NCBI RefSeq assembly: GCF_012272855.1
Contig: NZ_JAAXCQ010000010.1
Span: 62,001-126,000 of the forward strand
Direction: 5' to 3'
Length of the DNA stretch: 64,000 nucleotides
Origin: Arenibacter sp. 6A1
Lineage (GTDB): Bacteria; Bacteroidota; Bacteroidia; Flavobacteriales; Flavobacteriaceae
Shown: positions 44,085 to 62,479 of the stretch, piece after piece
How positions within the stretch are numbered: position 1 is the first letter of the stretch
Layout: each line of letters opens with the position of its first letter
Notes under the pieces: model-generated
Told to the model about the DNA's origin: nothing
Seen by the model: the letters and a program-made list of their open reading frames with translations, nothing else
Database searches by the model: none
Position numbers and translations under genes: made by a program

Positions 44085-44120
44085 AGCTTTGCGGTTTGGT
44101 TTGTAAAAGGTGTCCTCCAT

Positions 44121-44870: not shown

Positions 44871-46085
44871 ATGAAATCACTACTACTTTTTTTAGGCCTT
44901 TTGTGTTTTGGTTTTGGATTGACAGGTCAAAATCTACATAATCAGGCCAATGCAGCTTCAATTGCTAACGAGGCTAATACTACAACCGGTTGGACAGGGA
45001 ATGCCAGTATTACCTCGAGCACCAACAATCCTTTTCTTGGAACATTTTCTATCAATGCTGCTGCTTCTGCAAGTAACGGAAGGGATTGCGCTTATACATT
45101 TCCAGCTACAGTGGGGCAGGCCTATACTATCAGTATTTGGGCCAGGGCCGGAACCCAAAATTTTCAACCGGCATTTGCCAATTGGGCGGGCTTAACTGGA
45201 TTTTCCACCACTTTAATCAACGGTCTTAACTGGACACAATATACTTGGACTTTGACAGCTTCGAGTAACTCTCCTATTATTAGAATTTACACAAGTCCGA
45301 GTAGTGGAGGCAGTACTGGGGATTCCGTGTTTTTTGACAGTGTGTCTATTACAGCGGCAGGTGGTGGAGGAGACACCCAGCCTCCTTCTACGGTTACTAC
45401 TTTGGCTGCAGCGGGGACTACGTCTACTTCAACTAACTTAAATTGGAATGCCTCAACAGATAATGTCGGGGTTACCGGGTATACTATATTTCAAAATGGA
45501 ACTCAAATCGGGTCTCCAACGAACACCTTTTTCAATGTTACGGGATTGACACCAGGTACTACCTATGCCTTTACGGCAAGGGCTAGGGATGCCGCGGGGA
45601 ATACTTCGGCAGCGGGGAATACCGTCAATGTTACTACCGATACAGGAGGGGGAGGAGCTACCGATTATACTTCTACGAATGCTAATTTATTTACGGTAGA
45701 TTGGCGTGCAAGGGATTTATTTGCCAATAGAAATGTGGGGATAGGTACCACCAATACCCAAGGGCATCGATTGGCGGTAGCCGGTAGTATTATTGCTGAA
45801 GAAGTAAAAGTAGCTCTACAGACAAATTGGCCCGACTATATTTTTACTAAAGATTACCGATTGCCATCCTTGGAAGAAGTAGAACTGCAAATTATAGAAA
45901 GAGGGTATCTGCTAAATATTCCAAGCTCCAAGGAAATGGAAGAGAATGGAGTTGTTTTAGGGGACATGGTTTCTAGATTACTCCTGAAAATAGAAGAACT
46001 CACTCTCTATACTATTCAACAGGAGAAACGAATAAACCAAATGGATGAGGAATTAAAAAATATGAGGTTATTTAAAAAGGATTAA
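44871..46085 (+). CDS. secreted modular surface protein, short paralogue (CBM-like, FN3, C-terminal coiled coil)
   Basis: A 404-residue exported protein. After a signal peptide (LLLFLGLLCFGFGLTGQ) comes a beta-sandwich domain resembling carbohydrate-binding modules (about residues 22-165; ATVGQAYTISIWARAG, WTQYTWTLTASSNSPIIRIY), then one fibronectin type III domain (about 170-255; TNLNWNASTDNVGVTGYTIF) and a C-terminal module (about 270-404; RNVGIGTTNTQGHRLAVAGS, LPSLEEVELQI, then a coiled coil LLLKIEELTLYTIQQEKR). This C-terminal module recurs on flavobacterial surface proteins and recalls phage tail-fibre C-termini. The gene at 46499 has the same three parts with a repeat array inserted between the FN3 domain and the C-terminal module. 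Confidence 0.85.
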   Translation: MKSLLLFLGLLCFGFGLTGQNLHNQANAASIANEANTTTGWTGNASITSSTNNPFLGTFSINAAASASNGRDCAYTFPATVGQAYTISIWARAGTQNFQPAFANWAGLTGFSTTLINGLNWTQYTWTLTASSNSPIIRIYTSPSSGGSTGDSVFFDSVSITAAGGGGDTQPPSTVTTLAAAGTTSTSTNLNWNASTDNVGVTGYTIFQNGTQIGSPTNTFFNVTGLTPGTTYAFTARARDAAGNTSAAGNTVNVTTDTGGGGATDYTSTNANLFTVDWRARDLFANRNVGIGTTNTQGHRLAVAGSIIAEEVKVALQTNWPDYIFTKDYRLPSLEEVELQIIERGYLLNIPSSKEMEENGVVLGDMVSRLLLKIEELTLYTIQQEKRINQMDEELKNMRLFKKD

Positions 46086-46486
46086 AAAAACTGTAGATGC
46101 TTATTATTCAAAGAAATCAAATTGCTACAATGGATAGGATTTTGAACACAGGTTTTTAATGAATTATATCATAAAAAATAATCTATTCACAGCTTATAAA
46201 GTAAACAAGAAATAGCTTTCCAAGTATTAAAGATTTAATTAACATTCGATTGGAATTTAATTAACTCGTGGAGTTAGAATTATAGCTCGGTATTTTTTCA
46301 AAAGGAGCAGATCCTTATTGTTCTCATTTTTGGGCTTTTCTCGTACTATTTTAGGTTAAGAGGTATTTGGAATGTGTTATGAAGGAAATTTTTGCGTTTC
46401 AAAGAGATTACTTCAGAATGGATTATAAGCAGTTTATCTTAGTTAATCCTCCCCCGTTAACTTTTGATGAATGAAAATTTTTTAAA
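46086..46486. other. 401-bp non-coding gap between the paralogous surface protein genes
   Basis: AT-rich, no gene seen. It contains a direct repeat of TTTAATTAAC about 27 bases apart around 46232-46268. A promoter for the giant gene is likely here, but I could not place a clear TAnnTTTG box. Confidence 0.45.
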
Positions 46487-46498
46487 ATGTGGTATGAT

Positions 46499-49400
46499 AT
46501 GAAAAAAAAACTACTACTGTGTTTTATGATAGCATTGGGGCTAAGTGTACAAGGACAAAACTTGCATACACAGGCAAATGCAGCTTCTATTTTAAATGAA
46601 GCCAATGCAACCACGGGATGGACAGGGAATGCCGCTATAACGTCAAGCAATGTAAATCCATTTCAAGGAAATTTCTCACTAAGTGCCACCTCTACAGGAA
46701 GCACAGGGAATACTCGTGATATGAATTATACCTTTACCGCTGTTGTTGGACAAGTGTATACTATAAGTATCTGGGCTAGAGAGGGAAATTTAAGTGCGCA
46801 ACCAGCCTTTGCTAATTGGGCAGGATTTACAGGATTTTCTACTACCCCGATAGTCGGAAATAACTGGTCTCAATATACCTGGAATTTAACGGCTACTTCA
46901 ACCAGTCCCCTAATAAGAGTATATACTGCTCCTTATAATGGGGGGCAAGTAGGGAGCCAGGTGTTAATAGATAACGTTTCTATTACTGTACAAGATAACA
47001 CTCCTCCTACTGCACCCTCGAATTTAACGGCCAGTGGAACAACCACTACGACAACCAATTTATCTTGGACCGCATCAACAGATAATATAGGAGTCACTAG
47101 TTATAATGTTTTCCAAAATGGTGGGATAATAGGAACTACCCCTGGAGTCACTAATTTTAACGTTACCGGATTAACTGAAAATACTTCCTATAATTTTACG
47201 GTTTCGGCAAATGATGCAGCCGGTAATACTTCAGGCTTAAGTAATACGGCAAACGTAACTACATTAACCGCGGATACAGATTCACCCACTGTGCTTATTC
47301 AAGGAGCACCGGATATCGTGAACACTACCACAGCTTATAATGTGACGTTAGAGTTCAGCGAGGATGTTATTGGCTTTGACCAAGGAGATTTGGTATTAGT
47401 AAACGCAACGGCTTCCAATTTTATCTCAGTCGACGGCAATACCTATACGGTAGATATTACCCCGACCGGCGCAGGGGACATCACCATCGATGTTCCTGCA
47501 GACGTTGCCCAAGATGCCGCGGGGAACAATAATACAGCCGCCGCTCAGGTAACCACAACTTTTGATGCTGGAGCGCCGACGGTGCTTATTCAAAATGCAC
47601 CAGCGAGCGTGAATACTACGGCAGCTTATAATGTGACGCTAGAGTTCAGCGAGGATGTCGTTGGCTTTGACCAAGGAGATTTGGTACTAGGCAATGCAAC
47701 TGCTTCCAATTTTATCTCAGTCGATGGCAACACCTATACTGTAGATATTACCCCCAGCGGAGCAGGGGATATCACCATCGATGTTCCTGCAGACGTGGCC
47801 CAGGATACCGCAGGGAACAATAATATTGCCGCCGCCCAGGTCATCACAATTTTTGATGCTGGAGCGCCGACGGTGCTTATTCAAAATGCACCTGCGAGCG
47901 TGAATACTACGGCAGCTTATAATGTGACGTTAGAGTTCAGCGAGGATGTTGTTGGCTTTGACCAAGGAGATTTGGTATTAGTAAACGCAACGGCTTCCAA
48001 TTTTATCTCAGTCGACGGCAATACCTATACGGTAGATATTACCCCCAGCGGAGCTGGGAACATCACCATTGATGTTCCTGCAGACGTGGCCCAGGATACC
48101 GCAGGGAACAATAATACTGCCGCTGTCCAGGTCACCACGATTTTTGATGCTGGGGCCCCTAGTGTGGTAATTCAGGGAGCACCTGCGAGCGTGAATACTA
48201 CGGCAGCTTATAATGTGACGTTAGAGTTCAGCGAGGATGTTGTTGGCTTTGACCAAGGAGATTTGGTATTAGGCAATGCAACGGCTTCCAATTTTATCTC
48301 GGTCGACGACAATACCTATACGGTAGATATTACCCCGACCGGCGCAGGGGACATCACCATTGATGTTCCTGCCAACGTTGCCCAAGATCTTGCAGGGAAC
48401 AATAATACTGCCGCTGCCCAGGTCATCACAATTTTTGATGCTGGAGCGCCGACGGTGCTTATTCAAAATGCACCTGCGAGCGTGAATACTACGGCAGCTT
48501 ATAATGTGACGTTAGAGTTCAGCGAGGATGTTGTTGGCTTTGACCAAGGAGATTTGGTATTAGTAAACGCAACGGCTTCCAATTTTATCTCAGTCGACGG
48601 CAATACCTATACTGTAGATATTACCCCTAGCGGAGCAGGGGATATCACCATCGATGTTCCTGCCAACGTGGCTCAAGATGCCGCAGGGAACAATAATACT
48701 GCCGCCGCCCAGGTCACCACAATTTTTGATGCTGGAGCGCCGACGGTGCTTATTCAAAATGCACCTGCGAGCGTGAATACTACAGATGTCTTTAATGTGG
48801 CCTTAGAGTTCAGCGAGGATGTTGTTGGCTTTGACCAAGGAGATTTGGTACTAGGCAACGCAACGGCTTCCAATTTTATCTCAGTCGATGGCAATACCTA
48901 TACGGTCGATATTACCCCGACCGGAGCAGGGGACATCACCATAGATGTTCCTGCCAACGTGGCTCAAGATACCGCAGGGAACAATAATACTGCCGCTGCC
49001 CAGGTTACCACAACTTTTGATGCTGGAGCGCCGACGGTGCTTATTCAAAATGCACCTGCGAGCGTGAATACTACAGATGTCTTTAATGTGACCTTAGAGT
49101 TCAACGAAGATGTTGTTGGCTTTGACCAGGGAGATTTGGTATTAGTAAACGCAACGGCTTCCAATTTTATCTCAGTCGATGGCAATACCTATACGGTCGA
49201 TATTTCTCCGACCGGAGCAGGGGACATAACCATCGATGTTCCTGCAGACGTGGCTCAAGACATTTCAGGGAACAATAATACTGCCGCTATCCAGGTCATC
49301 ACGATTTTTGATGCTGGGGCTCCTAGTGTGGTAATTCAGGGAGCACCAGGGAGCGTGAATACTACGGCAGCTTATAATGTGACGTTAGAGTTCAGCGAGG

Positions 49401-52400
49401 ATGTTGTTGGCTTTGACCAGGGAGATTTGGTATTAGTAAACGCTACGGCTTCCAATTTTATCGCAGTTGACGGCAACACTTATACTGTAAATATTACCCC
49501 CAGCGGAACAGGGGACATCACCATTGATGTTCCTGCCAACGTGGCTCAAGATGCCGCAGGGAACAACAATACAGCCGCTGCTCAGGTCTCCACAATTTTT
49601 GATGCTGGGGCACCTAGCGTTGTAATTCAGGGAGCACCAGCGAGCGTGAATACTACAGATGTCTTTAATGTGACCTTAGAGTTCAACGAGGATGTTATTG
49701 GCTTTGACCAAGGAGATTTGGTATTAGTAAACGCAACGGCTTCCAATTTTATCTCAGTCGATGGTAATACCTATACGGTAGATATTACCCCCAGCGGAGC
49801 AGGGGACATCACCATCGATGTTCCTGCAGACGTTGCCCAAGATGCCGCGGGGAACAATAATACAGCCGCCGCTCAGGTAACCACAACTTTTGATGCTGGA
49901 GCGCCGACGGTGCTTATTCAAAATGCACCAGCGAGCGTGAATACTACGGCAGCTTATAATGTGACGTTAGAGTTCAGCGAGGATGTCGTTGGCTTTGACC
50001 AAGGAGATTTGGTATTAGTAAACGCAACGGCTTCCAATTTTATCGCAGTCGACGGCAATACCTATACTGTAGATATTACCCCCAGCGGAGCAGGGGATAT
50101 CACCATCGATGTTCCTGCAGACGTGGCCCAGGATACCGCAGGGAACAATAATATTGCCGCCGCCCAGGTCATCACAATTTTTGATTCAGGAGTCCCCTTT
50201 GTAGTTATCCAGGGAGCGCCAGGGAGCGTGAATACTACCACAGCTTATAATGTGACGTTAGAGTTCAGCGAGGATGTCGTAGGCTTTGACCAGGGGGATT
50301 TGGTATTAGTCAATGCAACTGCTTCCAGTTTTATCGCAGTTGACGGGAATACTTATACGGTAGATATTTCTCCGACCGGAGCAGGGGACATAACCATCGA
50401 TGTTCCTGCAGACGTGGCTCAAGACATTTCAGGGAACAATAATACTGCCGCCGTTCAAGTCACCACAATATTTGATGTTGAAGCACCTAGCGTGGTAATC
50501 CAGGGAGCACCAGCGAGCGTGAATACTACGGCTGTCTTTAATGTGACGCTAGAGTTCAGCGAGGATGTTATTGGCTTTGAAGAAGGAGATTTGGTATTAG
50601 TAAACGCAACATCTTCCAATTTTGTTGTGGTCGATGGCAATACCTATACGGTCGATATTACACCGACCGGAGCCGGGGACATCACCATTGATGTTCCTGC
50701 AGAAGTGGCCCAGGATACCGCAGGCAACAGCAATACTGCCGCCGCACAGGTCACCACAACTTTTGATGACACGCAACCTAGTGTCGTAATTCAAGGAGCG
50801 CCAGAGAGTGTGAATACTACGGCAGCTTTTAATGTGACGCTTGATTTCAGCGAGGATGTCGTTGGCTTTGATCAAGGAGATTTGGTATTAGTCAATGCAA
50901 CTGTTTCCAATTTTATCGCCGTCGATGGCAATACCTATACGGTAGATATTACTCCGACCGGAGCTGGGAACATCACCATTGATGTTCCTGCAGACGTGGC
51001 CCAGGATACCGCAGGGAACAATAATACTGCCGCTGCCCAGGTCACCACGATTTTTGATGCTGGGGCACCTAACGTTGTAATTCAGGGAGCACCAGCCAGC
51101 GTGAATACTACGGCAGCTTATAATGTGACGGCAGAATTCAGCGAGGATGTCGTTGGCTTTGAAATAGCAGATTTGGTATTAGGAAATGCAACTTCTTCAA
51201 ATTTTGTGGCGGTCGACGGCAATACCTATACGGTTGATATTACGCCCAGCGGAGCTGGGGATATCACTATAGATATTGCTGCAAATGTAGCTCAGGATAA
51301 TGCTGGTAACGAAAATACAGCTGCTGCCCAAGTTACTACGCTTTTTGATACTAGTCCGCCGACGGTGCTTATTCAAAATGCACCTGCGAGCGTGAATACT
51401 ACCACAGCTTATAATGTGACGTTAGAGTATAGCGAGGATGTCGTCGGCTTTGACCAAGGAGACTTGGTACTAGGCAATGCAACTGCTTCCAATTTTATCT
51501 CGGTCGACGGCAACACCTATACGGTTGATATTACTCCCAGCGGAGCAGGGGACATCACTATCGATGTTCCTGCAGACGTGGCTCAAGATGCCGCAGGGAA
51601 CAATAATACTGCCGCCGCCCAGGTCATCACAATTTTTGATGCTGGAGCGCCGACGGTGCTTATTCAAAATGCACCTGCGAGCGTGAATACTACGGCAGCT
51701 TACAATGTGACGGTAGAGTTCAGCGAGGATGTTGTTGGCTTTGACCAGGGAGATTTGGTATTAGGTAATGCAACTGCTTCCAATTTTATCTCGGTCGATG
51801 GCAATACCTATACGGTCGATATTACCCCCAGCGGAGCAGGGGACATCACCATCGATGTTCCTGCAGACGTGGCTCAAGATACCGCAGGGAACAATAATAC
51901 TGCCGCCGCCCAGGTCACCACAACTTTTGATGCCACGCAACCTAGTGTCGTAATTCAAGGAGCGCCAGAGAGTGTGAATACTACAGATGTCTTTAATGTG
52001 ACGTTTGATTTCAGCGAGGATGTCGTTGGCTTTGATCAAGGAGATTTGGTATTAGTCAATGCAACTGTTTCCAATTTTATCGCCGTCGATGGCAATACCT
52101 ATACGGTAGATATTACTCCGACCGGAGCTGGGAACATCACCATTGATGTTCCTGCAGACGTGGCCCAGGATACCGCAGGGAACAATAATACTGCCGCCGC
52201 ACAGGTCACCACGATTTTTGATGCTGGGGCCCCTAGTGTGGTAATTCAGGGGGCTCCAGCGAGCGTGAATACTACAGATGTCTTTAATGTGACGTTAGAG
52301 TTCAGCGAGGATGTAGTTGGCTTTGATCAAGGAGATTTGGTACTAGTAAATGCAACGGCTTCCAATTTTATCGCAGTCGATGGCAATACTTATACGGTAG

Positions 52401-55400
52401 ATATTACTCCGACCGGAGCTGGGAACATCACCATTGATGTTCCTGCAGACGTGGCCCAGGATACCGCAGGGAACAATAATACTGCCGCTGTCCAGGTCAC
52501 CACGATTTTTGATGCTGGGGCCCCTAGTGTGGTAATTCAGGGAGCACCTGCGAGCGTGAATACTACGGCAGCTTATAATGTGACGTTAGAGTTCAGCGAG
52601 GATGTCGTTGGCTTTGATCAAGGAGATTTGGTACTAGTAAATGCAACGGCTTCCAATTTTATCGCAGTCGATGGCAATTCCTATATGGTAGATATTACTC
52701 CGACCGGTGCAGGGGACATAACGATTGATGTTCCTGCAGACGTGGCCCAGGATACCGCAGGGAACAATAATACTGCCGCTGTCCAGGTCACCACGATTTT
52801 TGATGCTGGGGCCCCTAGTGTGGTAATTCAGGGAGCACCTGCGAGCGTGAATACTACGGCAGCTTATAATGTGACGTTAGAGTTCAGCGAGGATGTCGTT
52901 GGCTTTGATCAAGGAGATTTGGTATTAGTAAACGCTACGGCTTCCAATTTTATCTCGGTCGATGGCAATACCTATACGGTCGATATTACCCCCAGCGGAG
53001 CAGGGGACATCACTATAGATATTGCTGCAAATGTAGCTCAGGATAATGCTGGTAACGAAAATACAGCTGCTGCCCAAGTTACTACGCTTTTTGATACTAG
53101 TCCGCCGACGGTGCTTATTCAAAATGCACCTGCTAGCGTGAATACTACCACAGCTTATAATGTGACGTTAGAGTATAGCGAGGATGTCGTCGGCTTTGAC
53201 CAAGGAGATTTGGTACTAGGCAATGCAACTGCTTCCAATTTTATCTCGGTCGACGGCAACACCTATACGGTTGATATTACTCCCAGCGGAGCAGGGGACA
53301 TCACCATTGATGTTCCTGCAGACGTGGCTCAAGATGCCGCAGGGAACAATAATACTGCCGCTGCCCAGGTCATCACGATTTTTGATGCTGGGGCCCCAAG
53401 TGTGCTTATTCAAAATGCACCAGCGAGCGTGAATACTACGGCAGCTTATAATGTGACGTTAGAGTTCAGCGAGGATGTTGTTGGCTTTGACCAAGGAGAT
53501 TTGGTATTAGTAAACGCTACGGCTTCCAATTTTATCGCAGTTGACGGGAATACCTATACGGTAGATATTACTCCGACCGGTGCAGGGGACATCACCATCG
53601 ATGTTCCTGCTAACGTTGCCCAGGATACTGCAGGAAACAATAGTACTGCCGCCGCCCAGGTCATCACGATTTTTGATGCTGGGGCCCCTAGTGTGGTAAT
53701 TCAGGGAGCACCTGCGAGCGTGAATACTACGGCAGCTTATAATGTGACCTTAGAGTTCAGCGAGGATGTCGTTGGCTTTGATCAAGGAGATTTGGTATTA
53801 GTCAATGCAACTGCTTCCAATTTTATCTCGGTCGATGGCAATACCTATACGGTCGATATTACCCCCAGCGGAGCAGGGGACATCACCATCGATGTTCCTG
53901 CCAATGTTGCCCAAGATCTTGCAGGGAACAATAATACTGCCGCTGCCCAGGTCATCACGATTTTTGATGCTGGGGCCCCAAGTGTGCTTATTCAAAATGC
54001 ACCAGCGAGCGTAAATACTACGACAGCTTATAATGTGACGTTAGAGTTCAGCGAGGATGTTGTTGGCTTTGACCAAGGAGATTTGGTATTAGTAAACGCT
54101 ACGGCTTCCAATTTTATCGCAGTTGACGGGAATACCTATACGGTAGATATAACTCCGACCGGTGCAGGGGACATCACCATCGATGTTCCTGCTAACGTTG
54201 CCCAGGATACTGCAGGAAACAATAGTACTGCCGCCGCCCAGGTCATCACGATTTTTGATGCTGGGGCCCCTAGTGTGGTAATTCAGGGAGCACCTGCGAG
54301 CGTGAATACTACGGCAGCTTATAATGTGACGTTAGAGTTCAGCGAGGATGTCGTTGGCTTTGATCAAGGAGATTTGGTATTAGTCAATGCAACTGCTTCC
54401 AATTTTATCTCGGTCGATGGCAATACCTATACGGTCGATATTACCCCCAGCGGAGCAGGGGACATCACCATCGATGTTCCTGCCAACGTGGCTCAAGATG
54501 CCGCAGGGAACAACAATACTGCCGCCGCCCAGGTCACCACGATTTTTGATGCTGGGGCCCCTAGTGTGGTAATTCAGGGAGCACCAGCGAGCGTGAATAC
54601 TACGGCAGCTTATAATGTGACCTTAGAGTTCAGCGAGGATGTCGTTGGCTTTGATCAAGGAGATTTGGTACTAGTAAATGCAACGGCTTCCAATTTTATC
54701 GCAGTCGATGGCAATTCCTATATGGTAGATATTACTCCGACCGGTGCAGGGGACATCACCATTGATGTTCCTGCAGACGTGGCCCAGGATACCGCAGGGA
54801 ACAATAATACTGCCGCTGTCCAGGTCACCACGATTTTTGATGCTGGGGCCCCTAGTGTGGTAATTCAGGGAGCACCAGCGAGCGTGAATACTACCACAGC
54901 TTATAATGTGACGTTAGAGTTCAGCGAGGATGTCGTTGGCTTTGATCAAGGAGATTTGGTATTAGTCAATGCAACTGCTTCCAATTTTATCTCGGTCGAT
55001 GGCAATACCTATACGGTCGATATTACCCCCAGCGGAGCAGGGGACATCACCATCGATGTTCCTGCAGCCGTTGCCCAAGATCCTGCAGGGAACAACAATA
55101 CTGCCGCTGCCCAGGTTGTAACAACCTTTAATCTAGATGACACCCCTCCGAATGTTGTTATTTCTGGTGCTCCAGAAATTGTGAACAATACAAATCCTTA
55201 TAATTTAAGTATAGATTTCAGTGAAGATGTAACTGGCTTTGAACAAGGAGATATAGTTATTGGTAATGGCACAGCTACCAATTTTATCACTGTAGGTCCG
55301 AGTAACTATACCGTAGAAATAACCCCTAATGGGACAGGTAATATAACCATAGATATTCCCGCGAACGTTGCTCAAGATTTGGCAGGAAATAACAGTACTG

Positions 55401-56212
55401 CGGCATTAACAGTAATTACTACCTATGATGCTATAGCGCCAAGTACTAATATTATAGGGGAACCATTAGTAGTTAACACTACAAACCCTTATAGCATTAC
55501 TATTGAATTTAGTGAAGGCGTGCTAGGTTTTGAATTGGGTGATGTAATAATCGGTAACGGAACGAGCTCAAATTTTATGGTTGTCGATGGAAATACTTAT
55601 ACATTGGATATAAGTCCCACCGGAGCAGGAGATATAACTGTGGATGTTCCTGCCAATGTGGCTCAAGATGTAGCGGGGAACAATAATACCGCAGCTAGTC
55701 AGGCTATAACTTCTTTCGATGATGCTTTACATTATACCTCGGAAAATGCCAATTTAATTACTATAGATTGGCAAGCTAGGGATCTTAATGCTGCTCAAGA
55801 TATATTTGCTACACGAAATGTTGGTATTGGAACTCTAAACACCCAGGGCTATAGGTTGGCAGTAGATGGTAATGTTATTGCGGAGGAAATTAAAGTTGAA
55901 CTATCTCAAAATTGGCCAGATTTTGTATTTGAAAAAAAATATGTGCTTCCATCATTGGAAGAAGTAGAAAAACATATTTTGGAAAATGGACATTTGGAAA
56001 ATATCCCAAGTGCCAAAGAAGTAGCTGAAAGCGGAGGTATTCTTTTAGGTGAAATGAATGCCAAATTACTCCAAAAAATAGAGGAGCTCACATTGTATTC
56101 TATTCAACAAGAAAAGAAAATTAAAAAGCTCCAGGAGGAGAACATACAATTCCAACAATTGGCTCAGAAATTATTGGAATTGGAGAAACAAATTATGCAA
56201 ATGAAGAATTAG
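46499..56212 (+). CDS. giant surface protein with 29 tandem Ig-like repeats
   Basis: A 3,237-residue exported protein. Order: signal peptide (KKLLLCFMIALGLSVQGQ); CBM-like beta-sandwich (TISIWAREGNLSAQPAFANW) and one FN3 domain, both paralogous to the protein at 44871; 29 tandem bacterial Ig-like domains of 97 residues (about residues 263-3077), each with the blocks NVTLEFSEDVVGFDQGDLVL, NATASNFISVDGNTYTVDIT and DVAQDTAGNNNTAAAQV; then the shared C-terminal module (RNVGIGTLNTQGYRLAVDGN, coiled coil to the end). The first 27 repeats are nearly identical; 28 and 29 are diverged. The array contains no Lys, Arg, Cys or Trp. No type IX sorting domain is seen. I use the ATG at 46499 rather than 46487. 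Likely an adhesin or extended stalk; the tyrosinase gene follows after 25 bases. Confidence 0.88.
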   Translation: MKKKLLLCFMIALGLSVQGQNLHTQANAASILNEANATTGWTGNAAITSSNVNPFQGNFSLSATSTGSTGNTRDMNYTFTAVVGQVYTISIWAREGNLSAQPAFANWAGFTGFSTTPIVGNNWSQYTWNLTATSTSPLIRVYTAPYNGGQVGSQVLIDNVSITVQDNTPPTAPSNLTASGTTTTTTNLSWTASTDNIGVTSYNVFQNGGIIGTTPGVTNFNVTGLTENTSYNFTVSANDAAGNTSGLSNTANVTTLTADTDSPTVLIQGAPDIVNTTTAYNVTLEFSEDVIGFDQGDLVLVNATASNFISVDGNTYTVDITPTGAGDITIDVPADVAQDAAGNNNTAAAQVTTTFDAGAPTVLIQNAPASVNTTAAYNVTLEFSEDVVGFDQGDLVLGNATASNFISVDGNTYTVDITPSGAGDITIDVPADVAQDTAGNNNIAAAQVITIFDAGAPTVLIQNAPASVNTTAAYNVTLEFSEDVVGFDQGDLVLVNATASNFISVDGNTYTVDITPSGAGNITIDVPADVAQDTAGNNNTAAVQVTTIFDAGAPSVVIQGAPASVNTTAAYNVTLEFSEDVVGFDQGDLVLGNATASNFISVDDNTYTVDITPTGAGDITIDVPANVAQDLAGNNNTAAAQVITIFDAGAPTVLIQNAPASVNTTAAYNVTLEFSEDVVGFDQGDLVLVNATASNFISVDGNTYTVDITPSGAGDITIDVPANVAQDAAGNNNTAAAQVTTIFDAGAPTVLIQNAPASVNTTDVFNVALEFSEDVVGFDQGDLVLGNATASNFISVDGNTYTVDITPTGAGDITIDVPANVAQDTAGNNNTAAAQVTTTFDAGAPTVLIQNAPASVNTTDVFNVTLEFNEDVVGFDQGDLVLVNATASNFISVDGNTYTVDISPTGAGDITIDVPADVAQDISGNNNTAAIQVITIFDAGAPSVVIQGAPGSVNTTAAYNVTLEFSEDVVGFDQGDLVLVNATASNFIAVDGNTYTVNITPSGTGDITIDVPANVAQDAAGNNNTAAAQVSTIFDAGAPSVVIQGAPASVNTTDVFNVTLEFNEDVIGFDQGDLVLVNATASNFISVDGNTYTVDITPSGAGDITIDVPADVAQDAAGNNNTAAAQVTTTFDAGAPTVLIQNAPASVNTTAAYNVTLEFSEDVVGFDQGDLVLVNATASNFIAVDGNTYTVDITPSGAGDITIDVPADVAQDTAGNNNIAAAQVITIFDSGVPFVVIQGAPGSVNTTTAYNVTLEFSEDVVGFDQGDLVLVNATASSFIAVDGNTYTVDISPTGAGDITIDVPADVAQDISGNNNTAAVQVTTIFDVEAPSVVIQGAPASVNTTAVFNVTLEFSEDVIGFEEGDLVLVNATSSNFVVVDGNTYTVDITPTGAGDITIDVPAEVAQDTAGNSNTAAAQVTTTFDDTQPSVVIQGAPESVNTTAAFNVTLDFSEDVVGFDQGDLVLVNATVSNFIAVDGNTYTVDITPTGAGNITIDVPADVAQDTAGNNNTAAAQVTTIFDAGAPNVVIQGAPASVNTTAAYNVTAEFSEDVVGFEIADLVLGNATSSNFVAVDGNTYTVDITPSGAGDITIDIAANVAQDNAGNENTAAAQVTTLFDTSPPTVLIQNAPASVNTTTAYNVTLEYSEDVVGFDQGDLVLGNATASNFISVDGNTYTVDITPSGAGDITIDVPADVAQDAAGNNNTAAAQVITIFDAGAPTVLIQNAPASVNTTAAYNVTVEFSEDVVGFDQGDLVLGNATASNFISVDGNTYTVDITPSGAGDITIDVPADVAQDTAGNNNTAAAQVTTTFDATQPSVVIQGAPESVNTTDVFNVTFDFSEDVVGFDQGDLVLVNATVSNFIAVDGNTYTVDITPTGAGNITIDVPADVAQDTAGNNNTAAAQVTTIFDAGAPSVVIQGAPASVNTTDVFNVTLEFSEDVVGFDQGDLVLVNATASNFIAVDGNTYTVDITPTGAGNITIDVPADVAQDTAGNNNTAAVQVTTIFDAGAPSVVIQGAPASVNTTAAYNVTLEFSEDVVGFDQGDLVLVNATASNFIAVDGNSYMVDITPTGAGDITIDVPADVAQDTAGNNNTAAVQVTTIFDAGAPSVVIQGAPASVNTTAAYNVTLEFSEDVVGFDQGDLVLVNATASNFISVDGNTYTVDITPSGAGDITIDIAANVAQDNAGNENTAAAQVTTLFDTSPPTVLIQNAPASVNTTTAYNVTLEYSEDVVGFDQGDLVLGNATASNFISVDGNTYTVDITPSGAGDITIDVPADVAQDAAGNNNTAAAQVITIFDAGAPSVLIQNAPASVNTTAAYNVTLEFSEDVVGFDQGDLVLVNATASNFIAVDGNTYTVDITPTGAGDITIDVPANVAQDTAGNNSTAAAQVITIFDAGAPSVVIQGAPASVNTTAAYNVTLEFSEDVVGFDQGDLVLVNATASNFISVDGNTYTVDITPSGAGDITIDVPANVAQDLAGNNNTAAAQVITIFDAGAPSVLIQNAPASVNTTTAYNVTLEFSEDVVGFDQGDLVLVNATASNFIAVDGNTYTVDITPTGAGDITIDVPANVAQDTAGNNSTAAAQVITIFDAGAPSVVIQGAPASVNTTAAYNVTLEFSEDVVGFDQGDLVLVNATASNFISVDGNTYTVDITPSGAGDITIDVPANVAQDAAGNNNTAAAQVTTIFDAGAPSVVIQGAPASVNTTAAYNVTLEFSEDVVGFDQGDLVLVNATASNFIAVDGNSYMVDITPTGAGDITIDVPADVAQDTAGNNNTAAVQVTTIFDAGAPSVVIQGAPASVNTTTAYNVTLEFSEDVVGFDQGDLVLVNATASNFISVDGNTYTVDITPSGAGDITIDVPAAVAQDPAGNNNTAAAQVVTTFNLDDTPPNVVISGAPEIVNNTNPYNLSIDFSEDVTGFEQGDIVIGNGTATNFITVGPSNYTVEITPNGTGNITIDIPANVAQDLAGNNSTAALTVITTYDAIAPSTNIIGEPLVVNTTNPYSITIEFSEGVLGFELGDVIIGNGTSSNFMVVDGNTYTLDISPTGAGDITVDVPANVAQDVAGNNNTAASQAITSFDDALHYTSENANLITIDWQARDLNAAQDIFATRNVGIGTLNTQGYRLAVDGNVIAEEIKVELSQNWPDFVFEKKYVLPSLEEVEKHILENGHLENIPSAKEVAESGGILLGEMNAKLLQKIEELTLYSIQQEKKIKKLQEENIQFQQLAQKLLELEKQIMQMKN
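47285..55729 (+). repeat. tandem array of 29 coding repeats, 291-bp period
   Basis: Unit boundaries set at the Pro codon beginning each domain: unit 1 at 47285, unit 2 at 47576, then every 291 bases without indel until unit 27, which is 6 bases longer; unit 28 starts at 55148 and unit 29 at 55439. Two main starting types alternate irregularly (P[T/S]VLIQNAPASV and PSVVIQGAPASV). Multi-unit segments are duplicated inside the array, for example the end of unit 14 with unit 15 against the end of unit 20 with unit 21, exactly six units (1,746 bp) apart and nearly identical in DNA. Confidence 0.95.
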
Positions 56213-56237
56213 CTATAATCATCAAATTTAACACACG

Positions 56238-57590
56238 ATGAAAACGGTATACACATTGTTTATTTTATTAGGATTGGTAATAGATGTTGATGCGCAGAGT
56301 ATTCGAAAGAATTATCAAGAAATGACGGATTATGAAAGGACAGAATTGGTAAATGCTTTTTATGATATAAGGAATGGCGCAGATCTATTTAATGATATGG
56401 CTAATTTCCATATGGAATTTTTCAATTTTGATAATACAGCAGATCCAACGCGTTTAGATTTACACTTTAACCTTCCCGACGAACCGCAAAGGGAAATATT
56501 TCTACCTTGGCATAGAAGACAAATGTTTGAATTGGAACAAGCAGTACAAGATATTAATCCAAGGATAAGTTTGGCATGGTGGGATACCAGCATAGATCAG
56601 TCTACAAATTCTGCACTTTGGAATCAGAACTTTATGGGAAGCTTTAATACAAATTGGAGTTTAAACAGGAATTTGGGAGGGAACGGCCCATTACCAGTGC
56701 CTTCAGATGTAAGTAATTTATATGGTATGAGCAATTTTAATACCTTTTCAAACGAATTGGAAAGAAGAGCCGTCCATAGGGGGGCGCATGTATGGACTGG
56801 AGGAGCAATGCCCACTCCCTTATCTCCTCGTGATCCAGTATTTTTTCTCCACCATACCTTTGTCGATTTCATATGGTTTAATTGGGAAGAAATCTACAAT
56901 AGTTCTTCCTTTCTGAGATCTTCGATGTTGCGGTATGACGGGACTTATTCATTTAATGGAGAAACTTTGCCCTTAGTTAATCCGAACAGTATAACTGATA
57001 CACGATCCTTAGGGGTTTTTTATGGTGCCAATGGTCTAGCTCAACTTAATAATTATATTGTTAGTAATACTTATAGACCTCAAGAAGTCTTTTATTATCA
57101 ATTTTTGATTCGTGTCGGGAATAATTTTATAGTTCCTAGTGGAACAGATTGTAGCATTGAATCCGTCAATGAAATTTTAATGGTTCCTGGATTTGAAGCT
57201 ACTTCCGGATCAAGATTTTTGGCTTCTATAGATGTGGATAATCAGTCTAATAGACCTGGAATTAAAACTAGGGTTAAAAAACCGTATGAGCATGTGGCTA
57301 ACCTTCAGGAAATAGTATGGGAAGAAGATAATAAGGACGATAGCCCAGTTCTTTTACAAGCTTTTCCAAATCCCTTTACAGAAAAAATTACGATTAAATT
57401 AAATAAGAATACAGATTGTAGTGTAGAGGTGTTTAATATGATGGGGGTATTGATCCGGCAAGAAGCCTTCCAAAATACCGACACTATTATTATTAATAAA
57501 TTATACGGGCTTGCTGCTGGTTTTTATGTAATTCGAGTGGTAGATGCAAAAGGAGATATTATTATAGCCAAAAGAGTGGTAAAACTTTAG
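56238..57590 (+). CDS. secreted tyrosinase-family copper enzyme with type IX sorting domain
   Basis: A 450-residue exported type 3 copper protein; tyrosinases oxidise phenols and o-diphenols to quinones using two copper ions and O2. Signal peptide about residues 1-19. Copper A ligands: His58 (NFHMEF), His76 (LHFNLP) and His92 in FLPWHRRQMFELEQ. Copper B ligands: His180 and His184 (HRGAH) and His205/206 in DPVFFLHHTFVDFIWFNWEE. The C-terminal part (about residues 368-450) is a type A type IX secretion sorting domain: QAFPNPFTEKITIKL, VEVFNMMGVLIRQE, and an ending GFYVIRVVDAKGDIIIAKRV. It should therefore be displayed on the surface or released. It begins 25 bases after the giant repeat gene and is probably co-transcribed with it. 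Confidence 0.93.
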   Translation: MKTVYTLFILLGLVIDVDAQSIRKNYQEMTDYERTELVNAFYDIRNGADLFNDMANFHMEFFNFDNTADPTRLDLHFNLPDEPQREIFLPWHRRQMFELEQAVQDINPRISLAWWDTSIDQSTNSALWNQNFMGSFNTNWSLNRNLGGNGPLPVPSDVSNLYGMSNFNTFSNELERRAVHRGAHVWTGGAMPTPLSPRDPVFFLHHTFVDFIWFNWEEIYNSSSFLRSSMLRYDGTYSFNGETLPLVNPNSITDTRSLGVFYGANGLAQLNNYIVSNTYRPQEVFYYQFLIRVGNNFIVPSGTDCSIESVNEILMVPGFEATSGSRFLASIDVDNQSNRPGIKTRVKKPYEHVANLQEIVWEEDNKDDSPVLLQAFPNPFTEKITIKLNKNTDCSVEVFNMMGVLIRQEAFQNTDTIIINKLYGLAAGFYVIRVVDAKGDIIIAKRVVKL

Positions 57591-57656
57591 TGATTTCTAC
57601 TAAACAACTCCTTGATCAATCATCAATCTTAAGTTTTCGTGTTAATTTACAGATCC

Positions 57657-58040
57657 TTAATGAGATTTTCCGTGGTCCATGTGTATGCTATTAGGATCTC
57701 TGTATTTACAACATTCCGGTAAGGCTTCGTAAATCTTTAAATCGGCCACTGTTTCGTCCGTATCGTGTCCAACGGCTGCTATGGTCTTTTTAATATCTAT
57801 AACCTTACATTTATTCTCATCCATTATCAGGTTAAGCTCCTTTGACTGAATATTCCATGATACATATTTAACCCCTTTAAGTTTAAGAGAAGCTTTTTCG
57901 ATTCTAGATTTACACATCTCACAATTGCCTTTTACATAAAAGCTTATTTTTTTGTTTTTGTCCTGAGCATTTAAATTAAAGCCAATAAATAATAGTAAAG
58001 TGACTATAAGTGCTTTAAATGAGTTGTTTGTATTTATCAT
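57657..58040 (-). CDS. exported heavy-metal-associated (HMA) domain protein
   Basis: A 127-residue protein with a signal peptide (about residues 1-25; LIVTLLLFIGFNLNA) and one HMA domain whose metal site is KGNCEMCKSRIEK (Cys40 and Cys43), the CxxC arrangement of copper chaperones such as CopZ. The C-terminal tail carries a further Cys pair and several His (LPECCKYRDPNSIHMDHGKS). It follows the TonB-dependent receptor gene by 54 bases on the minus strand and converges on the tyrosinase gene. Copper is the most likely ligand by family and by the neighbouring copper enzyme, though other soft metals are possible. Confidence 0.9.
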   Translation of the reverse strand: MINTNNSFKALIVTLLLFIGFNLNAQDKNKKISFYVKGNCEMCKSRIEKASLKLKGVKYVSWNIQSKELNLIMDENKCKVIDIKKTIAAVGHDTDETVADLKIYEALPECCKYRDPNSIHMDHGKSH

Positions 58041-58094
58041 GATGAAATATTTTTTATAAGTTTAGTTAATGCTTAAATTCTGATTCATATAATT

Positions 58095-60332
58095 TTATAA
58101 CTTATATCGAAAACCAAGGTAATAGGTATGTCCTAAAACAGGTTTATATAATAGGGTACTGTCAAAATAGGGCCCAAAAGGATCTTCGGCACCAAGTATG
58201 GCAATTTTTTGAGTAGTATTGGTTATATTTTCACCTCCAAGATAAATTTCAAATTTTTCATTGAGGACTCTAGTCAATTGACCATTTACGATACTATAAG
58301 CATCAGACGAGGTAGGTAAGCGATATGGGGCAGGATTTTCCGAAGTATTTGGTAAACGTTGTCTACCTTGCCAGTTTACGGTAAGATCCATCCTCCATTG
58401 TCCTTCTCTATATTTTTTTAATGTTTCATAATTAAGATTAACAAAAAAGCGATGTTTGGACTGTAAGGGTTTGGTCTTTGATCCCGAATTATAATCCAGT
58501 TCTACATTGTAATTTTTATAGGTCGCCCTGATATCCAAATTTTGGATAATCTCATAGTTCACATCTATTTGTAAACTATTCGAAAAACTTTTTCCTGTTA
58601 GGTTATAAAAGGATATTTCCCTAGGGTTCTCCCAATCGATTAATACCTGATCTTTAAAGACAATTCTGTTAAAATCAATTGAAAAGTCAAACGACCTATT
58701 ATTAATATATAATTTCTGAATAAATCCAACCCCATAATTCCACGCAATCTCTGGTTGCAGGGTATATATGTTTCCCGAGTTATTTATAATGTTTATGCTA
58801 CGTGAGCTAGCAAACATTTGTTGGTTTTCTGCAAAAATATTAGCAGCCCGTTTTCCTCTTCCAATAGAAAATCTAAGACTAGACTGCTTCCATAAGGCAT
58901 ATCTTAGGTGCAGTCTAGGCGTTATAAAAGTATTTAATCGGTTATGACTGTCAATCCTTATACCCGCTACAAAACTTAGTTTTTCAAGGTTGTCGTAGGT
59001 GTATTCAAAAAATCCACCAACTGAGTTGTCGCTCCGGTCCATATCCTCTGAGTTAACGCTCTCATCAAAGGAATCATAAGTATAACTAAGTCCGGTTTTA
59101 AATTTATGTTGGGTGCTTCCAATGATACTATTGAATAAAAAGTTAGAGTAAAAGGATTGATGCTGTACATCATAATGGTTAAATCCATAATATGAATTCT
59201 GGGCATGGTTGCTAAAGGCTGTTTGAAGACCAAAACTTTGGTAGGGAAGTTCGGGAAAAACATAGCCTAGTTTGGCAGAAACATCAAGTCTGTCGGTATT
59301 TACTTCGCTACCCCAATTGTTATTGGTGAATTTATCCCTTTTAGGATTAAAATCTTCTTGACCTATTTGTTTTTCATCAAGTAAATACTGAAAATTTAAA
59401 AAACTGATCCACCCTTTTTTAGGGTCTAAAAATTGCCACCGATTCATGAAATTTATTTGTTTTGACAGTGGGGTATCTAAAAAACTGTCGGAATTTTTGT
59501 CGATGGTACCATTTCTCAGGTTGGCATGAAGGTAAACCCCAGTACCTATGTTTTCCGAAAACTTATAATTATATCTTGTATTGATTTCAAATCTTTCATA
59601 ATTATTGGCATAAGCATTTAAAAACAGCTTTTTATCGGTAAGAGGCTTTACCAATTCACTATTTATTTGCCCCGAAATGCTTTCAAAACCATTTAAAACA
59701 CTACCAGAACCTTTAGTGATTTGAATGCTTTCTACCCATGATCCTGGAATGAAGGACATTCCATATATTTGGGAAGCACCTCGGATAAATGGCATGTTTT
59801 CTTGGGTAAACAATAAATAGGGGCTATTTAAACCCAACATCTGAATTTGTTTAGCACCGGTAATGGCGTCTGAAATATTCACGTCTACCGATGGGTTGGT
59901 TTCAAAACTTTCCGACAAGTTACAGCAGGCCGCTTTTAACATTTCCCTGCTATCTACGGTCACTACGTTCTGAATATTGAAAAGCGATTTTTGAATAGGG
60001 TTTAATTTTTTTTGTACCGTGACTTCTTCGAGCTCTTTATCTGGTCTTAACCATATTTTTCCTAGATTAGGTCTATTAGCTACTATGGTATCGGACTGGT
60101 AGCCCACATAGCTAATAACGATTTTTCCATATTCTTTTTTGAAGGGAATAGAAAATTCTCCTGCGTTGTTGGTGCTAGTTCCTACAGTACTATTTAGCCA
60201 AATAATATTAACATCGGATAAGGGTATTTCCTTCCGATCGTTACTATAGCCTAACACCGTTCCAGATATATTTATTTGACCGGATACTAAAGAAGTAAAT
60301 AGGGATAAAAAAAATGTTTTTAATAACCTCAT
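58095..60332 (-). CDS. TonB-dependent outer-membrane receptor, probably metal-linked
   Basis: A 745-residue non-SusC TonB-dependent receptor. A signal peptide (LLKTFFLSLFTSLVSGQ) and a carboxypeptidase-regulatory-like domain (about residues 20-105; SGTVLGYSNDRKEIPLSDVN) precede the plug (LNPIQKSLFNIQNVVTVDSR; LKAACCNLSESFETNPSVDV; GSGSVLNGFESISGQINSEL) and a barrel that ends YYLGFRYKL. There is no STN domain. Receptors of this type with a Cys-Cys pair in the plug and an adjacent HMA gene are common in Bacteroidota and are usually taken to be copper or other metal transporters; that assignment is inference. It is transcribed with the HMA gene downstream. Confidence 0.88.
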   Translation of the reverse strand: MRLLKTFFLSLFTSLVSGQINISGTVLGYSNDRKEIPLSDVNIIWLNSTVGTSTNNAGEFSIPFKKEYGKIVISYVGYQSDTIVANRPNLGKIWLRPDKELEEVTVQKKLNPIQKSLFNIQNVVTVDSREMLKAACCNLSESFETNPSVDVNISDAITGAKQIQMLGLNSPYLLFTQENMPFIRGASQIYGMSFIPGSWVESIQITKGSGSVLNGFESISGQINSELVKPLTDKKLFLNAYANNYERFEINTRYNYKFSENIGTGVYLHANLRNGTIDKNSDSFLDTPLSKQINFMNRWQFLDPKKGWISFLNFQYLLDEKQIGQEDFNPKRDKFTNNNWGSEVNTDRLDVSAKLGYVFPELPYQSFGLQTAFSNHAQNSYYGFNHYDVQHQSFYSNFLFNSIIGSTQHKFKTGLSYTYDSFDESVNSEDMDRSDNSVGGFFEYTYDNLEKLSFVAGIRIDSHNRLNTFITPRLHLRYALWKQSSLRFSIGRGKRAANIFAENQQMFASSRSINIINNSGNIYTLQPEIAWNYGVGFIQKLYINNRSFDFSIDFNRIVFKDQVLIDWENPREISFYNLTGKSFSNSLQIDVNYEIIQNLDIRATYKNYNVELDYNSGSKTKPLQSKHRFFVNLNYETLKKYREGQWRMDLTVNWQGRQRLPNTSENPAPYRLPTSSDAYSIVNGQLTRVLNEKFEIYLGGENITNTTQKIAILGAEDPFGPYFDSTLLYKPVLGHTYYLGFRYKL

Positions 60333-60665: not shown

Positions 60666-61022
60666 ATGAAAAGAGTATTAGCAATATTATCAGTGATGCT
60701 GTTTGTATTCTGCGGAAATATAAATGAACTTCCAATAGTTCAAGAGACTAAAATAAGGGTTATTAACCGTACCAATAATAATTTCAGTAATGTAGTTTTA
60801 TTTTCAATGAAATTCCCTGATTTAAAACCAAAAGACACCTCGGAATTTAAAATTTTAAATTATGATCCCTTAAGGGACGATCCTTTAATTTATTGCTCCA
60901 TTGGAGATGAAAATTATGCTCGCTATTTAGAAATCCCCAAGGAGGGTATAGTTAATTTTACCTATTCCATTGATACTATTCAAGACGGGATTATTTATGT
61001 TAGTTCGGTATCCGGAAATTAA
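60666..61022 (+). CDS. small lipoprotein of unknown function
   Basis: A 118-residue protein with a signal peptide ending in a lipobox-like FVFC (Cys about residue 16). The mature part (about 100 residues) looks like a small beta-rich domain (IRVINRTNNNFSNVVLFSMK, FTYSIDTIQDGIIYVSSV). I recognise no family. It is 87 bases before the CapK-like gene. Confidence 0.65.
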   Translation: MKRVLAILSVMLFVFCGNINELPIVQETKIRVINRTNNNFSNVVLFSMKFPDLKPKDTSEFKILNYDPLRDDPLIYCSIGDENYARYLEIPKEGIVNFTYSIDTIQDGIIYVSSVSGN

Positions 61023-61108: not shown

Positions 61109-62479
61109 ATGAAAGCTTTGGAATTTTTACGTAGAAAACTATTTTGGTCAGTAGATGCGATTAAGGGGGGAAAAGTGACTCGACACTTGAAGGATATTGC
61201 TTCATTACAAAGAAAATTTCATGATAACGGATATTCACGAGTAACCGAGGGATACCTAACAAATTTAATCACTCATGCAACAACTTCTGTTCCCTTGTAT
61301 AAAAACTTCACCAAGGATAATGTGTTGCAAGATTTTCCAGTAGTTGACAAGGCTTATATACGTGATAATTTTAAATTATTCGAAAGCAAAGAATTTATCG
61401 ATAAAAAAAAGTATAAAGTAACAACCAGTGGGTCTACAGGGAAACCTTTCTACATTTTACATGATAAAAATAAAAGGGACAGAAATACGGCAGACACCAT
61501 TTATTTTTCTGAAAAAGCGGGGTATAAATTGGGGGCAAGGTTGTATTACTTAAGACTGTGGGATAAGCAATATAAAAAGGGAAATTTTTTATCTTGGGTT
61601 CAAAATGTTAGGACTAATTATTCGGTCGATAATTTTAATGATCAAAAAATAGCAGGCTGGATAAGAGAATTAGAAAATGACAATTCCAACAAGAGTATTT
61701 TGGGGTATACTTCCGCCTTGCAAGCGATTTTTAAATTCTTGGATAATAAGAAAGCAAAACCATTAGAAACAAAAATAAATGGGGTAGTAGCCATTGCTGA
61801 AGGTTTGGATGAATATGTTAGAAAAGGAGTAAAAAAATATTTTAAAACCCATGTTGTTTCTCGATATTCAAATTCGGAAAATGGAATTATTGCCCAACAA
61901 AATATGGGCAATAGAAATTTTGAAGTCAACTGGGCCAGTTATTTTGTCGAAATTTTGGATTTGAACAAGGATATACCAGTACCCAATGGCACTTTAGGCA
62001 GGATTGTTATTACTGATCTTTTTAGTTATGCCATGCCATTAATAAGATATGATACAGGAGATGTTGGAATATTAAATTTTGAGACTAAGGATGATTGTAA
62101 AGCCTTAGTGCTTTCGCAAATTGAAGGAAGAAAAATGGATATGTTTACCAATACCAAGGGCGAGTTTATCACCTCTCATATTGTTCATCATATATTACAA
62201 TTTAATGGTATTGATCAATTTCAGTTTATACAGGAATCGAATAATAAATATATTATAAAACTTAAGGTAGCATATGATTTTGATTACGACGATGAACTAG
62301 AAATAATTAAAAAATATCAAGAATTTTTAGGGCATGACGCCAATATAAACATAGAATACGTAATCGATATTCCTTTACTTAAATCTGGGAAAAGAAAATT
62401 GGTTGTGAATAATGCTTTGAATACTCTACCTAAAATGAGGAATAAATCTAAAGAAGAATCGGGATTAAAAACTATTTAA
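61109..62479 (+). CDS. CapK/PaaK-like adenylate-forming enzyme
   Basis: A 456-residue member of the phenylacetate-CoA ligase-like adenylating family, in the branch often labelled CapK and found in capsule or exopolysaccharide clusters. Seen: FPVVDKAYIRDNFKLFES near the start, the ATP loop TTSGSTGKPFYILHDKN (about residues 108-124), HVVSRYSNSENGIIAQ and VITDLFSYAMPLIRYDTGD. It probably activates a carboxylic acid as an acyl-adenylate for transfer to a surface glycan or lipid; the acid is unknown. The FemAB/GNAT-like gene at 62512 converges on it, a plausible functional partner. Confidence 0.87.
   Translation: MKALEFLRRKLFWSVDAIKGGKVTRHLKDIASLQRKFHDNGYSRVTEGYLTNLITHATTSVPLYKNFTKDNVLQDFPVVDKAYIRDNFKLFESKEFIDKKKYKVTTSGSTGKPFYILHDKNKRDRNTADTIYFSEKAGYKLGARLYYLRLWDKQYKKGNFLSWVQNVRTNYSVDNFNDQKIAGWIRELENDNSNKSILGYTSALQAIFKFLDNKKAKPLETKINGVVAIAEGLDEYVRKGVKKYFKTHVVSRYSNSENGIIAQQNMGNRNFEVNWASYFVEILDLNKDIPVPNGTLGRIVITDLFSYAMPLIRYDTGDVGILNFETKDDCKALVLSQIEGRKMDMFTNTKGEFITSHIVHHILQFNGIDQFQFIQESNNKYIIKLKVAYDFDYDDELEIIKKYQEFLGHDANINIEYVIDIPLLKSGKRKLVVNNALNTLPKMRNKSKEESGLKTI

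What the first reader, a model, noticed from the sequence alone, without database searches (positions are those of the whole stretch)
44871..60332. Possible surface adhesion system: giant repeat protein, secreted tyrosinase and copper-handling genes
A 3,237-residue Ig-like repeat protein is followed after 25 bases by a tyrosinase with a type IX sorting domain, and convergent to it lie an exported CxxC HMA protein and a TonB-dependent receptor with a Cys-Cys plug. Tyrosinase needs two copper ions, so metal supply genes next to it make sense. Most repeats carry two Tyr (in AYNV and TYTV). A tyrosinase that turned surface tyrosines or environmental phenols into DOPA/quinones could glue or cross-link the cell surface or matrix, in the manner of mussel adhesives. 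Gene content and order are seen; the functional link is inference, and the repeat Tyr may be buried in the Ig fold. A simpler alternative is defence against, or use of, algal phenolics.
Basis: partly seen in the sequence, partly recalled or inferred. Interest (0 to 1): 0.8.

Follow-up and report, generated by a model that had tools for sequence, protein, structure and literature searches.

The report
Conserved fibre–tyrosinase–copper gene cassette
A secreted copper enzyme that oxidises phenols is encoded, in dozens of Bacteroidota, right behind a probably sugar-binding surface fibre and often beside its own copper-supply genes and coat-sugar genes, which suggests a bacterial way of chemically curing its outer coat.

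Summary
In 46 of 50 related loci (44 of 47 genomes) a fibre gene lies immediately upstream of the tyrosinase on its strand: jelly-roll (best listed solved match a porphyran-binding module), fn3 repeats, tail-fibre-like 'GIGT' coiled-coil end. In 199 genomes of the family, jelly-roll and tyrosinase occur in 9 each, together in 8. In the genus (18 genomes, Arenibacter) tyrosinase, fibre and a second HMA–TonB-receptor pair mark the same 8 genomes; the other 10 lack all three. The 29-repeat Ig array is a lineage-specific insert, poor in Tyr (2.0%) and Lys (0.5%). A small exported protein and a PaaK-like ligase are further recurrent neighbours, and the window locus borders a capsule/EPS cluster. 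Best reading: a T9SS-exported tyrosinase with dedicated copper supply oxidises phenols within a fibre-and-polysaccharide coat, probably curing it. The cassette is shown; the chemistry is inferred. Ten searches of an open-access library listed no paper describing it.

The parts
44871..46085 (+). P0001, compact fibre paralogue: signal peptide, jelly-roll, one fn3, GIGT/coiled-coil C-terminus
   Evidence: translation; fn3 PF00041; AF2 model and structure matches
46487..56212 (+). P0002, giant fibre: jelly-roll, fn3, 29 Big_12 Ig-like repeats, GIGT/coiled-coil C-terminus
47290..55116 (+). 291-bp tandem array (26.9 copies by TRF) coding for most of the Ig-like repeats
   Evidence: repeat analysis
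55817..56209 (+). GIGT/coiled-coil C-terminal domain of P0002
   Evidence: two matches at E <= 0.001 in the whole genome, both in this locus
56238..57590 (+). P0003, tyrosinase with 3-coathanger stack region and T9SS type A sorting tail
57657..58040 (-). P0004, HMA copper-chaperone-like protein with signal-like start, CxxC and Cys-Cys/His-rich tail
58095..60332 (-). P0005, TonB-dependent receptor with Cys-Cys plug, tyrosinase-linked second copy
60666..61022 (+). P0006, small protein with signal-like start (predicted Ig-like beta-sandwich), recurrent neighbour of the tyrosinase
61109..62479 (+). P0007, PaaK-like adenylate-forming ligase
62512..63705 (-). P0008, FemAB/GNAT-type protein at the edge of a capsule/EPS cluster that runs on beyond the window
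43014..44120 (-). ATP-grasp (PylC-like N-terminus; carbamoyl phosphate synthase-like) protein, recurrent neighbour
41792..42886 (-). FemAB/GNAT-type protein, found near some other cassettes

Best explanation
This is an inherited extracellular phenol-oxidation cassette. Shown: an elongated surface-type fibre (jelly-roll, fn3, here also Ig repeats, coiled-coil end) and a T9SS-tailed tyrosinase are encoded as a unit, with an HMA protein and TonB receptor, a small exported-type protein and a PaaK-like ligase as recurrent partners, here beside a capsule/EPS cluster. Inferred: the TonB receptor and HMA protein bring copper into the envelope and load the tyrosinase before or during T9SS export. The tyrosinase works at the cell surface, in a coat of polysaccharide held by the carbohydrate-binding fibre. 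The PaaK-like ligase activates an aryl acid that ends up on the polysaccharide or a matrix component, and the tyrosinase turns these (or environmental) phenols into quinones that cure or cross-link the coat. The fibre is spacer and organiser, not chiefly the Tyr substrate; the Ig array only lengthens it.
Against: No experiment; substrate and product unknown. L084, L121 and L128 have tyrosinase, HMA, TBDR and small protein without the fibre, and no EPS gene was recognised near them, so the EPS link is not universal; L130 has none of the partners. 17 of 50 loci show no PaaK-like gene and 17 of 50 no small-protein gene in the DNA held (some contigs are short). PaaK-like genes of another clade also lie upstream in 12 loci, so such genes are common in these EPS loci. 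P0007 is far under the PaaK equivalog cut-off (53.6 against 646.3 bits), so an aryl substrate is a guess. The HMA-TBDR pair exists in all 18 genus genomes away from any tyrosinase; its metal is inferred. Carbohydrate binding rests on fold alone. The residue after the first CuB His is Asn in only 4 of 41; by recall that Asn favours monophenolase activity, so the enzyme may prefer diphenols.
Confidence: 0.42

Rival explanations
1. The tyrosinase handles environmental phenols (algal phenolics, free tyrosine or catechols) for detoxification, melanin-like pigment or competition; the fibre is a carbohydrate-binding adhesin that keeps cells on algal polysaccharide, and the EPS genes are neighbours without a shared chemistry.
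For: The best listed solved match of the jelly-roll is a module that binds porphyran, an algal galactan. Three loci lack fibre and recognised EPS genes but keep tyrosinase and HMA-TBDR. Cellulophaga tyrosinoxydans is described as having strong tyrosinase activity and a yellow pigment (passage of PMC2855505); an uncultured Cellulophaga has the cassette (L085); whether C. tyrosinoxydans has it was not tested.
Against: Fibre and tyrosinase are found together or not at all in nearly all genomes sampled, and the PaaK-like ligase sits close behind tyrosinase or the small protein in several genera, which detoxification does not need.
Confidence: 0.33
2. One reading: the tyrosinase oxidises Tyr of the giant repeat protein to DOPA/quinone and so cross-links the protein, as in mussel adhesives.
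For: Direct adjacency (25 bp) and one Tyr present in 28 of 28 equal-length repeats; fibre partner conserved.
Against: Ig array seen only in the window and its closest relative, plus one repeat at the contig edge of Eudoraea L124. Tyr is low (2.0%; 36 partners over 400 aa median 2.6%), Lys 0.5%, His 0.1%, one Cys in 3241 residues. One repeat Tyr swaps with Phe in 7 of 28, as core positions do.
Confidence: 0.1
3. Fibre and tyrosinase work together, but PaaK-like ligase, FemAB and other EPS genes are only fellow passengers in a variable surface-polysaccharide locus.
For: EPS loci are known hotspots of gene exchange (recalled); PaaK-like genes are absent from the held DNA of 17 of 50 loci and also occur upstream in another clade.
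Against: Downstream ligases are strongly clustered on the tree (3 changes against 15.7 in shuffles; one 21-row clade 100/99), and their position is stereotyped; the window genome has only one other such gene at E <= 1e-10 (26% identity).
Confidence: 0.15

Closest known systems
Streptomyces MelC1-MelC2 (tyrosinase with caddie protein)
   Same: Secreted type-3 copper tyrosinase; a small exported-type protein is a frequent neighbour (33 of 50 loci).
   Different: T9SS tail, not Tat export with the caddie (recalled); P0003 is far below the MelC2 equivalog cut-off (106.8 against 450 bits); P0006 has no His and its predicted fold matches PepT2 and AlgF domains best, MelC1 not listed.
Marinomonas mediterranea PpoB1-PpoB2
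   Same: Marine tyrosinase encoded with a protein for copper delivery (passages of PMC2855505).
   Different: PpoB2 is likened to COG5486 there; here the candidates are an HMA protein and a TonB receptor, and a fibre, small protein and ligase are added.
Bagremycin/ferroverdin pathway (BagH/FevF oxidase with BagE/FevW ligase)
   Same: A tyrosinase-family oxidase together with a PaaK-related ligase; weak NCBIfam matches of P0003 (86.4 bits) and P0007 (27.8 bits) to these models.
   Different: Both far below cut-off (630 and 800); an actinobacterial natural-product pathway (recalled), no fibre, no T9SS, no EPS locus.
T9SS type A cargo proteins of Bacteroidota
   Same: TIGR04183 in 41 of 41 tyrosinases scanned; SprA in the genome.
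   Different: No listed paper describes a tyrosinase cargo (searches, judged by listings).
Large Ig-/fn3-repeat adhesins of Bacteroidota
   Same: Signal peptide, tandem Big_12 or fn3 domains.
   Different: Ends in a GIGT/coiled-coil domain, not a T9SS tail, and is tied by gene order and phyletic pattern to a tyrosinase.
Mussel adhesive proteins cured by tyrosinase
   Same: Analogy only (recalled): phenol oxidase plus surface protein.
   Different: The bacterial fibre is Tyr- and Lys-poor; the substrate is more likely elsewhere.

Membership tests
Tyrosinase (type-3 copper, PF00264) | Pfam match above the gathering score | tested here: met
   82.1 bits against 22.6
Tyrosinase (type-3 copper, PF00264) | Six copper-binding His | tested here: met
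   H58, H92, H180, H184, H206 in 41 of 41 aligned; H76 in 40 of 41, the exception (L132) has a His one place away; assignment of the six as ligands is by recalled spacing
Tyrosinase (type-3 copper, PF00264) | Monophenolase activity | not testable with these tools
   sequence only; residue after the first CuB His is Arg in the window and Asn in 4 of 41
MelC2 (NCBIfam equivalog) | Score above NF047834 cut-off | tested here: not met
   106.8 against 450 bits
MelC1-type caddie (for P0006) | MelC1 fold | tested here: inconclusive
T9SS cargo | C-terminal type A sorting domain | tested here: met
   42.2 against 23 bits; 41 of 41 aligned relatives match at E 0.001
T9SS cargo | T9SS in the genome | tested here: met
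   SprA 2881 bits over a cut-off of 200; other components not searched
T9SS cargo (for the fibres P0001, P0002) | T9SS tail | tested here: not met
   no Por_Secre_tail in Pfam scans; TIGR04183 not among the families matched by 20 aligned fibres
HMA domain protein | HMA domain with CxxC | tested here: met
   PF00403 27.4 against 24.8 bits; CxxC in 29 of 29 linked copies
CopZ/MerP (NCBIfam) | Score above cut-off | tested here: not met
   32.9 against 91, 18.2 against 92.55 bits
PaaK phenylacetate-CoA ligase | Equivalog score | tested here: not met
   53.6 against 646.3 bits
PaaK-like adenylate-forming superfamily | Sequence match to solved PaaK | tested here: met
   4r1l E 8.7e-10, 9s3l E 9.7e-10; no Pfam family at E 0.01
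Carbohydrate-binding module (jelly-roll of the fibre) | CBM-type jelly-roll fold | tested here: met
Carbohydrate-binding module (jelly-roll of the fibre) | Binds a glycan | not testable with these tools
   none
Tyr-rich adhesive substrate protein | Enrichment in Tyr | tested here: not met
   2.04% against 4.10% in 18 other window ORFs; 36 partners over 400 aa 2.09-3.73%

The most novel reading that the evidence does not exclude
A bacterial tanning system: a PaaK-like ligase puts phenolic acyl groups on the capsule polysaccharide, a carbohydrate-binding fibre organises that capsule, and a T9SS-exported, copper-provisioned tyrosinase oxidises the phenols to quinones and so cures the capsule in place, with a fibre that is itself poor in quinone-reactive Lys, His and Cys.
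Probability: 0.17. Interest if true: 0.88.

Novelty: new variant of a known kind. Interest (0 to 1): 0.62.

Why it matters
It would give Bacteroidota an enzyme-cured extracellular coat and explain why these genomes keep a copper enzyme outside the cell. It also gives a natural set of partners for underwater adhesion, a testable role for a Cys-Cys plug TonB receptor with its HMA partner as a copper supply, and a function for a fibre family and a small exported-type protein that matched no Pfam or NCBIfam family here as a whole. The patchy presence within one genus (8 of 18) makes comparison of natural strains direct.

Tried and rejected
Ig-repeat Tyr as substrate: weakened by composition, Phe exchange and absence of the array in relatives. 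P0006 as a MelC1 homologue: MelC1 not among listed structure matches, left open. Bacteroidetes promoter pattern (recalled): 5 matches in the window, 4.2 expected, none in the cassette. Phage-tail link of the GIGT end: PHROG tail-fibre matches for L131's ORF (E 3.5e-9) and fn3-driven tail matches for P0001, taken as resemblance only. GTA head-spike model: weak in one Leptobacterium protein and 1 of 20 fibres, not used. AF2 of P0001: residues 19-37 and 260-326 are below pLDDT 50, so the GIGT fold is unknown; an oligomer could not be modelled. A first Cys-Cys pattern was wrong and found nothing; corrected.

Limits of the counts. One search's tally (109 of 199) is mostly T9SS-tail matches; I counted only the 9 with E below 1e-70. 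One search found 137 relatives and kept the best 80; 57 were not seen. I took L081-L130 as the clade and L133-L160 as contrast, with L131 and L132 told apart. The 50 loci are 47 genomes (L110/L126, L118/L119 and L128/L129 share one) and lean to Allomuricauda/Flagellimonas and Arenibacter. Domain counts used window sequences as queries, so divergent copies may be missed. Of the 36 partners over 400 aa one (L081) is cut by a contig edge. The 41 tyrosinases aligned are the window and 40 of 52 loci; the 20 fibres aligned are P0001 and 19 loci. In one search two ligases on the opposite strand just behind the tyrosinase (L127, L129) were labelled 'UP' by a 3-base overlap. Fisher values are not corrected for phylogeny. 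Papers: ten searches used (41, 42, 53, 54, 60, 68, 83, 86, 87, 93; two returned none); I saw listings, and passages only of PMC9454253, PMC3111997, PMC7440613 and PMC2855505.
Full report
WHAT IS THERE. The window carries, in order, a compact fibre protein P0001 (44871-46085), a giant fibre protein P0002 (46487-56212), a tyrosinase P0003 (56238-57590), and on the other strand an HMA protein P0004 (57657-58040) and a TonB-dependent receptor P0005 (58095-60332); then a small protein P0006 with a signal-like start (60666-61022), a PaaK-like ligase P0007 (61109-62479) and a FemAB/GNAT-type protein P0008. P0003 passes the Pfam tyrosinase and T9SS-tail cut-offs. P0002 holds 29 Ig-like repeats and one fn3 domain. 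The 28 equal-length repeats average 83% DNA identity (59-99%), none identical, with mean dN 0.10 and dS 0.57, so the protein sequence is under constraint.

IS THE NEIGHBOURHOOD REAL? A family sample of 199 genomes (each listed row from a different genus) has 9 tyrosinases of this kind (E below 1e-70). Of the 8 other than the window's, 7 have a jelly-roll/fn3/GIGT protein directly upstream on the same strand; the eighth (G017, 42% identity) does not. The jelly-roll alone occurs in 9 of 199 genomes at E 1e-10, 8 of them tyrosinase genomes; the ninth, G026, is a weaker match without tyrosinase (Fisher 1.5e-12 without correction for descent). The GIGT end is commoner (71 of 199 genomes at E 1e-10), but in the window's genome it is matched only twice at E 0.001, both here. 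In the genus 8 of 18 genomes have the tyrosinase, the same 8 have the jelly-roll, and the same 8 have a second TonB receptor near the tyrosinase, while all 18 have one elsewhere. All 26 receptor copies have an HMA gene beside them and the Cys-Cys motif.

A scan of named genomes found 137 relatives and kept 80 loci, of which 50 (L081-L130, 37-97% identity over the best segment) I treat as this clade: Arenibacter, Allomuricauda/Flagellimonas, Cellulophaga, Galbibacter, Zhouia, Muriicola, Pricia, Mangrovimonas, Leptobacterium and others. Neighbours in these 50: fibre directly upstream 46 (44 of 47 genomes); HMA and TBDR 29; small protein 33; PaaK-like ligase downstream on the same strand 27, anywhere in the DNA held 33. 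Fibre-to-tyrosinase gaps are -8 to 95 bp by first-ATG starts, apart from L090 with another ORF between; in L089 the fibre falls in more than one frame. The four without fibre are L084, L121, L128 and L130. L121 and L128 show TBDR, tyrosinase, small protein and HMA in one orientation, good evidence that these four act together. Two remote relatives of 30-31% identity (L131, L132) still have a GIGT domain directly upstream, in L132 in an ORF cut by a stop, while for 28 more distant tyrosinases (L133-L160) no jelly-roll or GIGT domain was found; the only other hits there were one fn3, one PaaK-like and one sugar-transferase match. So two modules, fibre and copper supply, are each tied to the tyrosinase and can occur one without the other.

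HOW IT MOST LIKELY WORKS. Shown: conserved gene order, phyletic co-occurrence, intact catalytic and export signals. Inferred: copper intake by the TonB receptor, loading by HMA, export by T9SS, action in the polysaccharide-fibre coat, and an aryl acid supplied by the PaaK-like ligase. The giant protein is a poor quinone substrate: Tyr 2.0%, Lys 0.5%, His 0.1%, one Cys; 36 partners over 400 aa have median Tyr 2.6%, Lys 2.0%. That favours a phenol elsewhere, on the glycan or from outside. The rival of environmental phenols or pigment is close behind, helped by the three fibre-less loci and by the algal-galactan match of the jelly-roll.

KNOWN OR NEW. Copper helpers next to tyrosinases are known (MelC1, recalled; PpoB2, PMC2855505 passages). 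Tyrosinase activity is reported for Cellulophaga tyrosinoxydans (PMC2855505 passage; title in the reference list of PMC3111997). No paper listed by searches appears to describe a T9SS tyrosinase with a fibre partner or an EPS locus; the library is open-access only, and I judged by listings. I file the enzyme as a tyrosinase and the whole as a new variant of a known kind.

Noticed in passing
L038:13467-14630 (-), Leptobacterium: Jelly-roll/fn3 protein with a T9SS type A tail in place of the GIGT end, next to the cassette: a natural tail swap.
   Followed up: partly
L121:7708-12173 and L128:7693-12173: TBDR, tyrosinase, small protein and HMA in one orientation, the small protein 5 bp behind the tyrosinase, with no EPS gene recognised nearby.
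   Followed up: partly
window 33149-36097: ORF with a glycoside hydrolase family 3 domain and a beta-lactamase domain in one protein.
   Followed up: no
L043:10860-13913 (-): Second, larger (1017 aa) tyrosinase-like ORF near the cassette in one genome.
   Followed up: no
L110:13884-14642 (-), Pricia antarctica: A second tyrosinase-like stretch near the cassette; the same genome has another fibre-tyrosinase pair at L126.
   Followed up: no
L082:5793-6161, L083:5356-5694, L099:5390-5725, L101:5683-6021, L104:5655-6008: Five Arenibacter loci have a further GIGT-ended gene upstream on the opposite strand, beside a small ORF with a 'GCSPEDG' motif near its start.
   Followed up: no
G077:C1:1533687-1534556: A 1633-aa frame with two jelly-roll domains away from the tyrosinase.
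   Followed up: no
all 18 Arenibacter genomes, L061-L078: A general HMA-TBDR pair with Cys-Cys plug away from any tyrosinase; its metal and role are open.
   Followed up: partly
L081:1-1206 and G209:C35: In A. nanhaiticus contigs end inside or beside the repeat array, so array length is uncertain in short-read assemblies.
   Followed up: no
L120:6814-9952: A Bacteroidales locus has two fibre genes in tandem upstream of the tyrosinase, as in the window.
   Followed up: no
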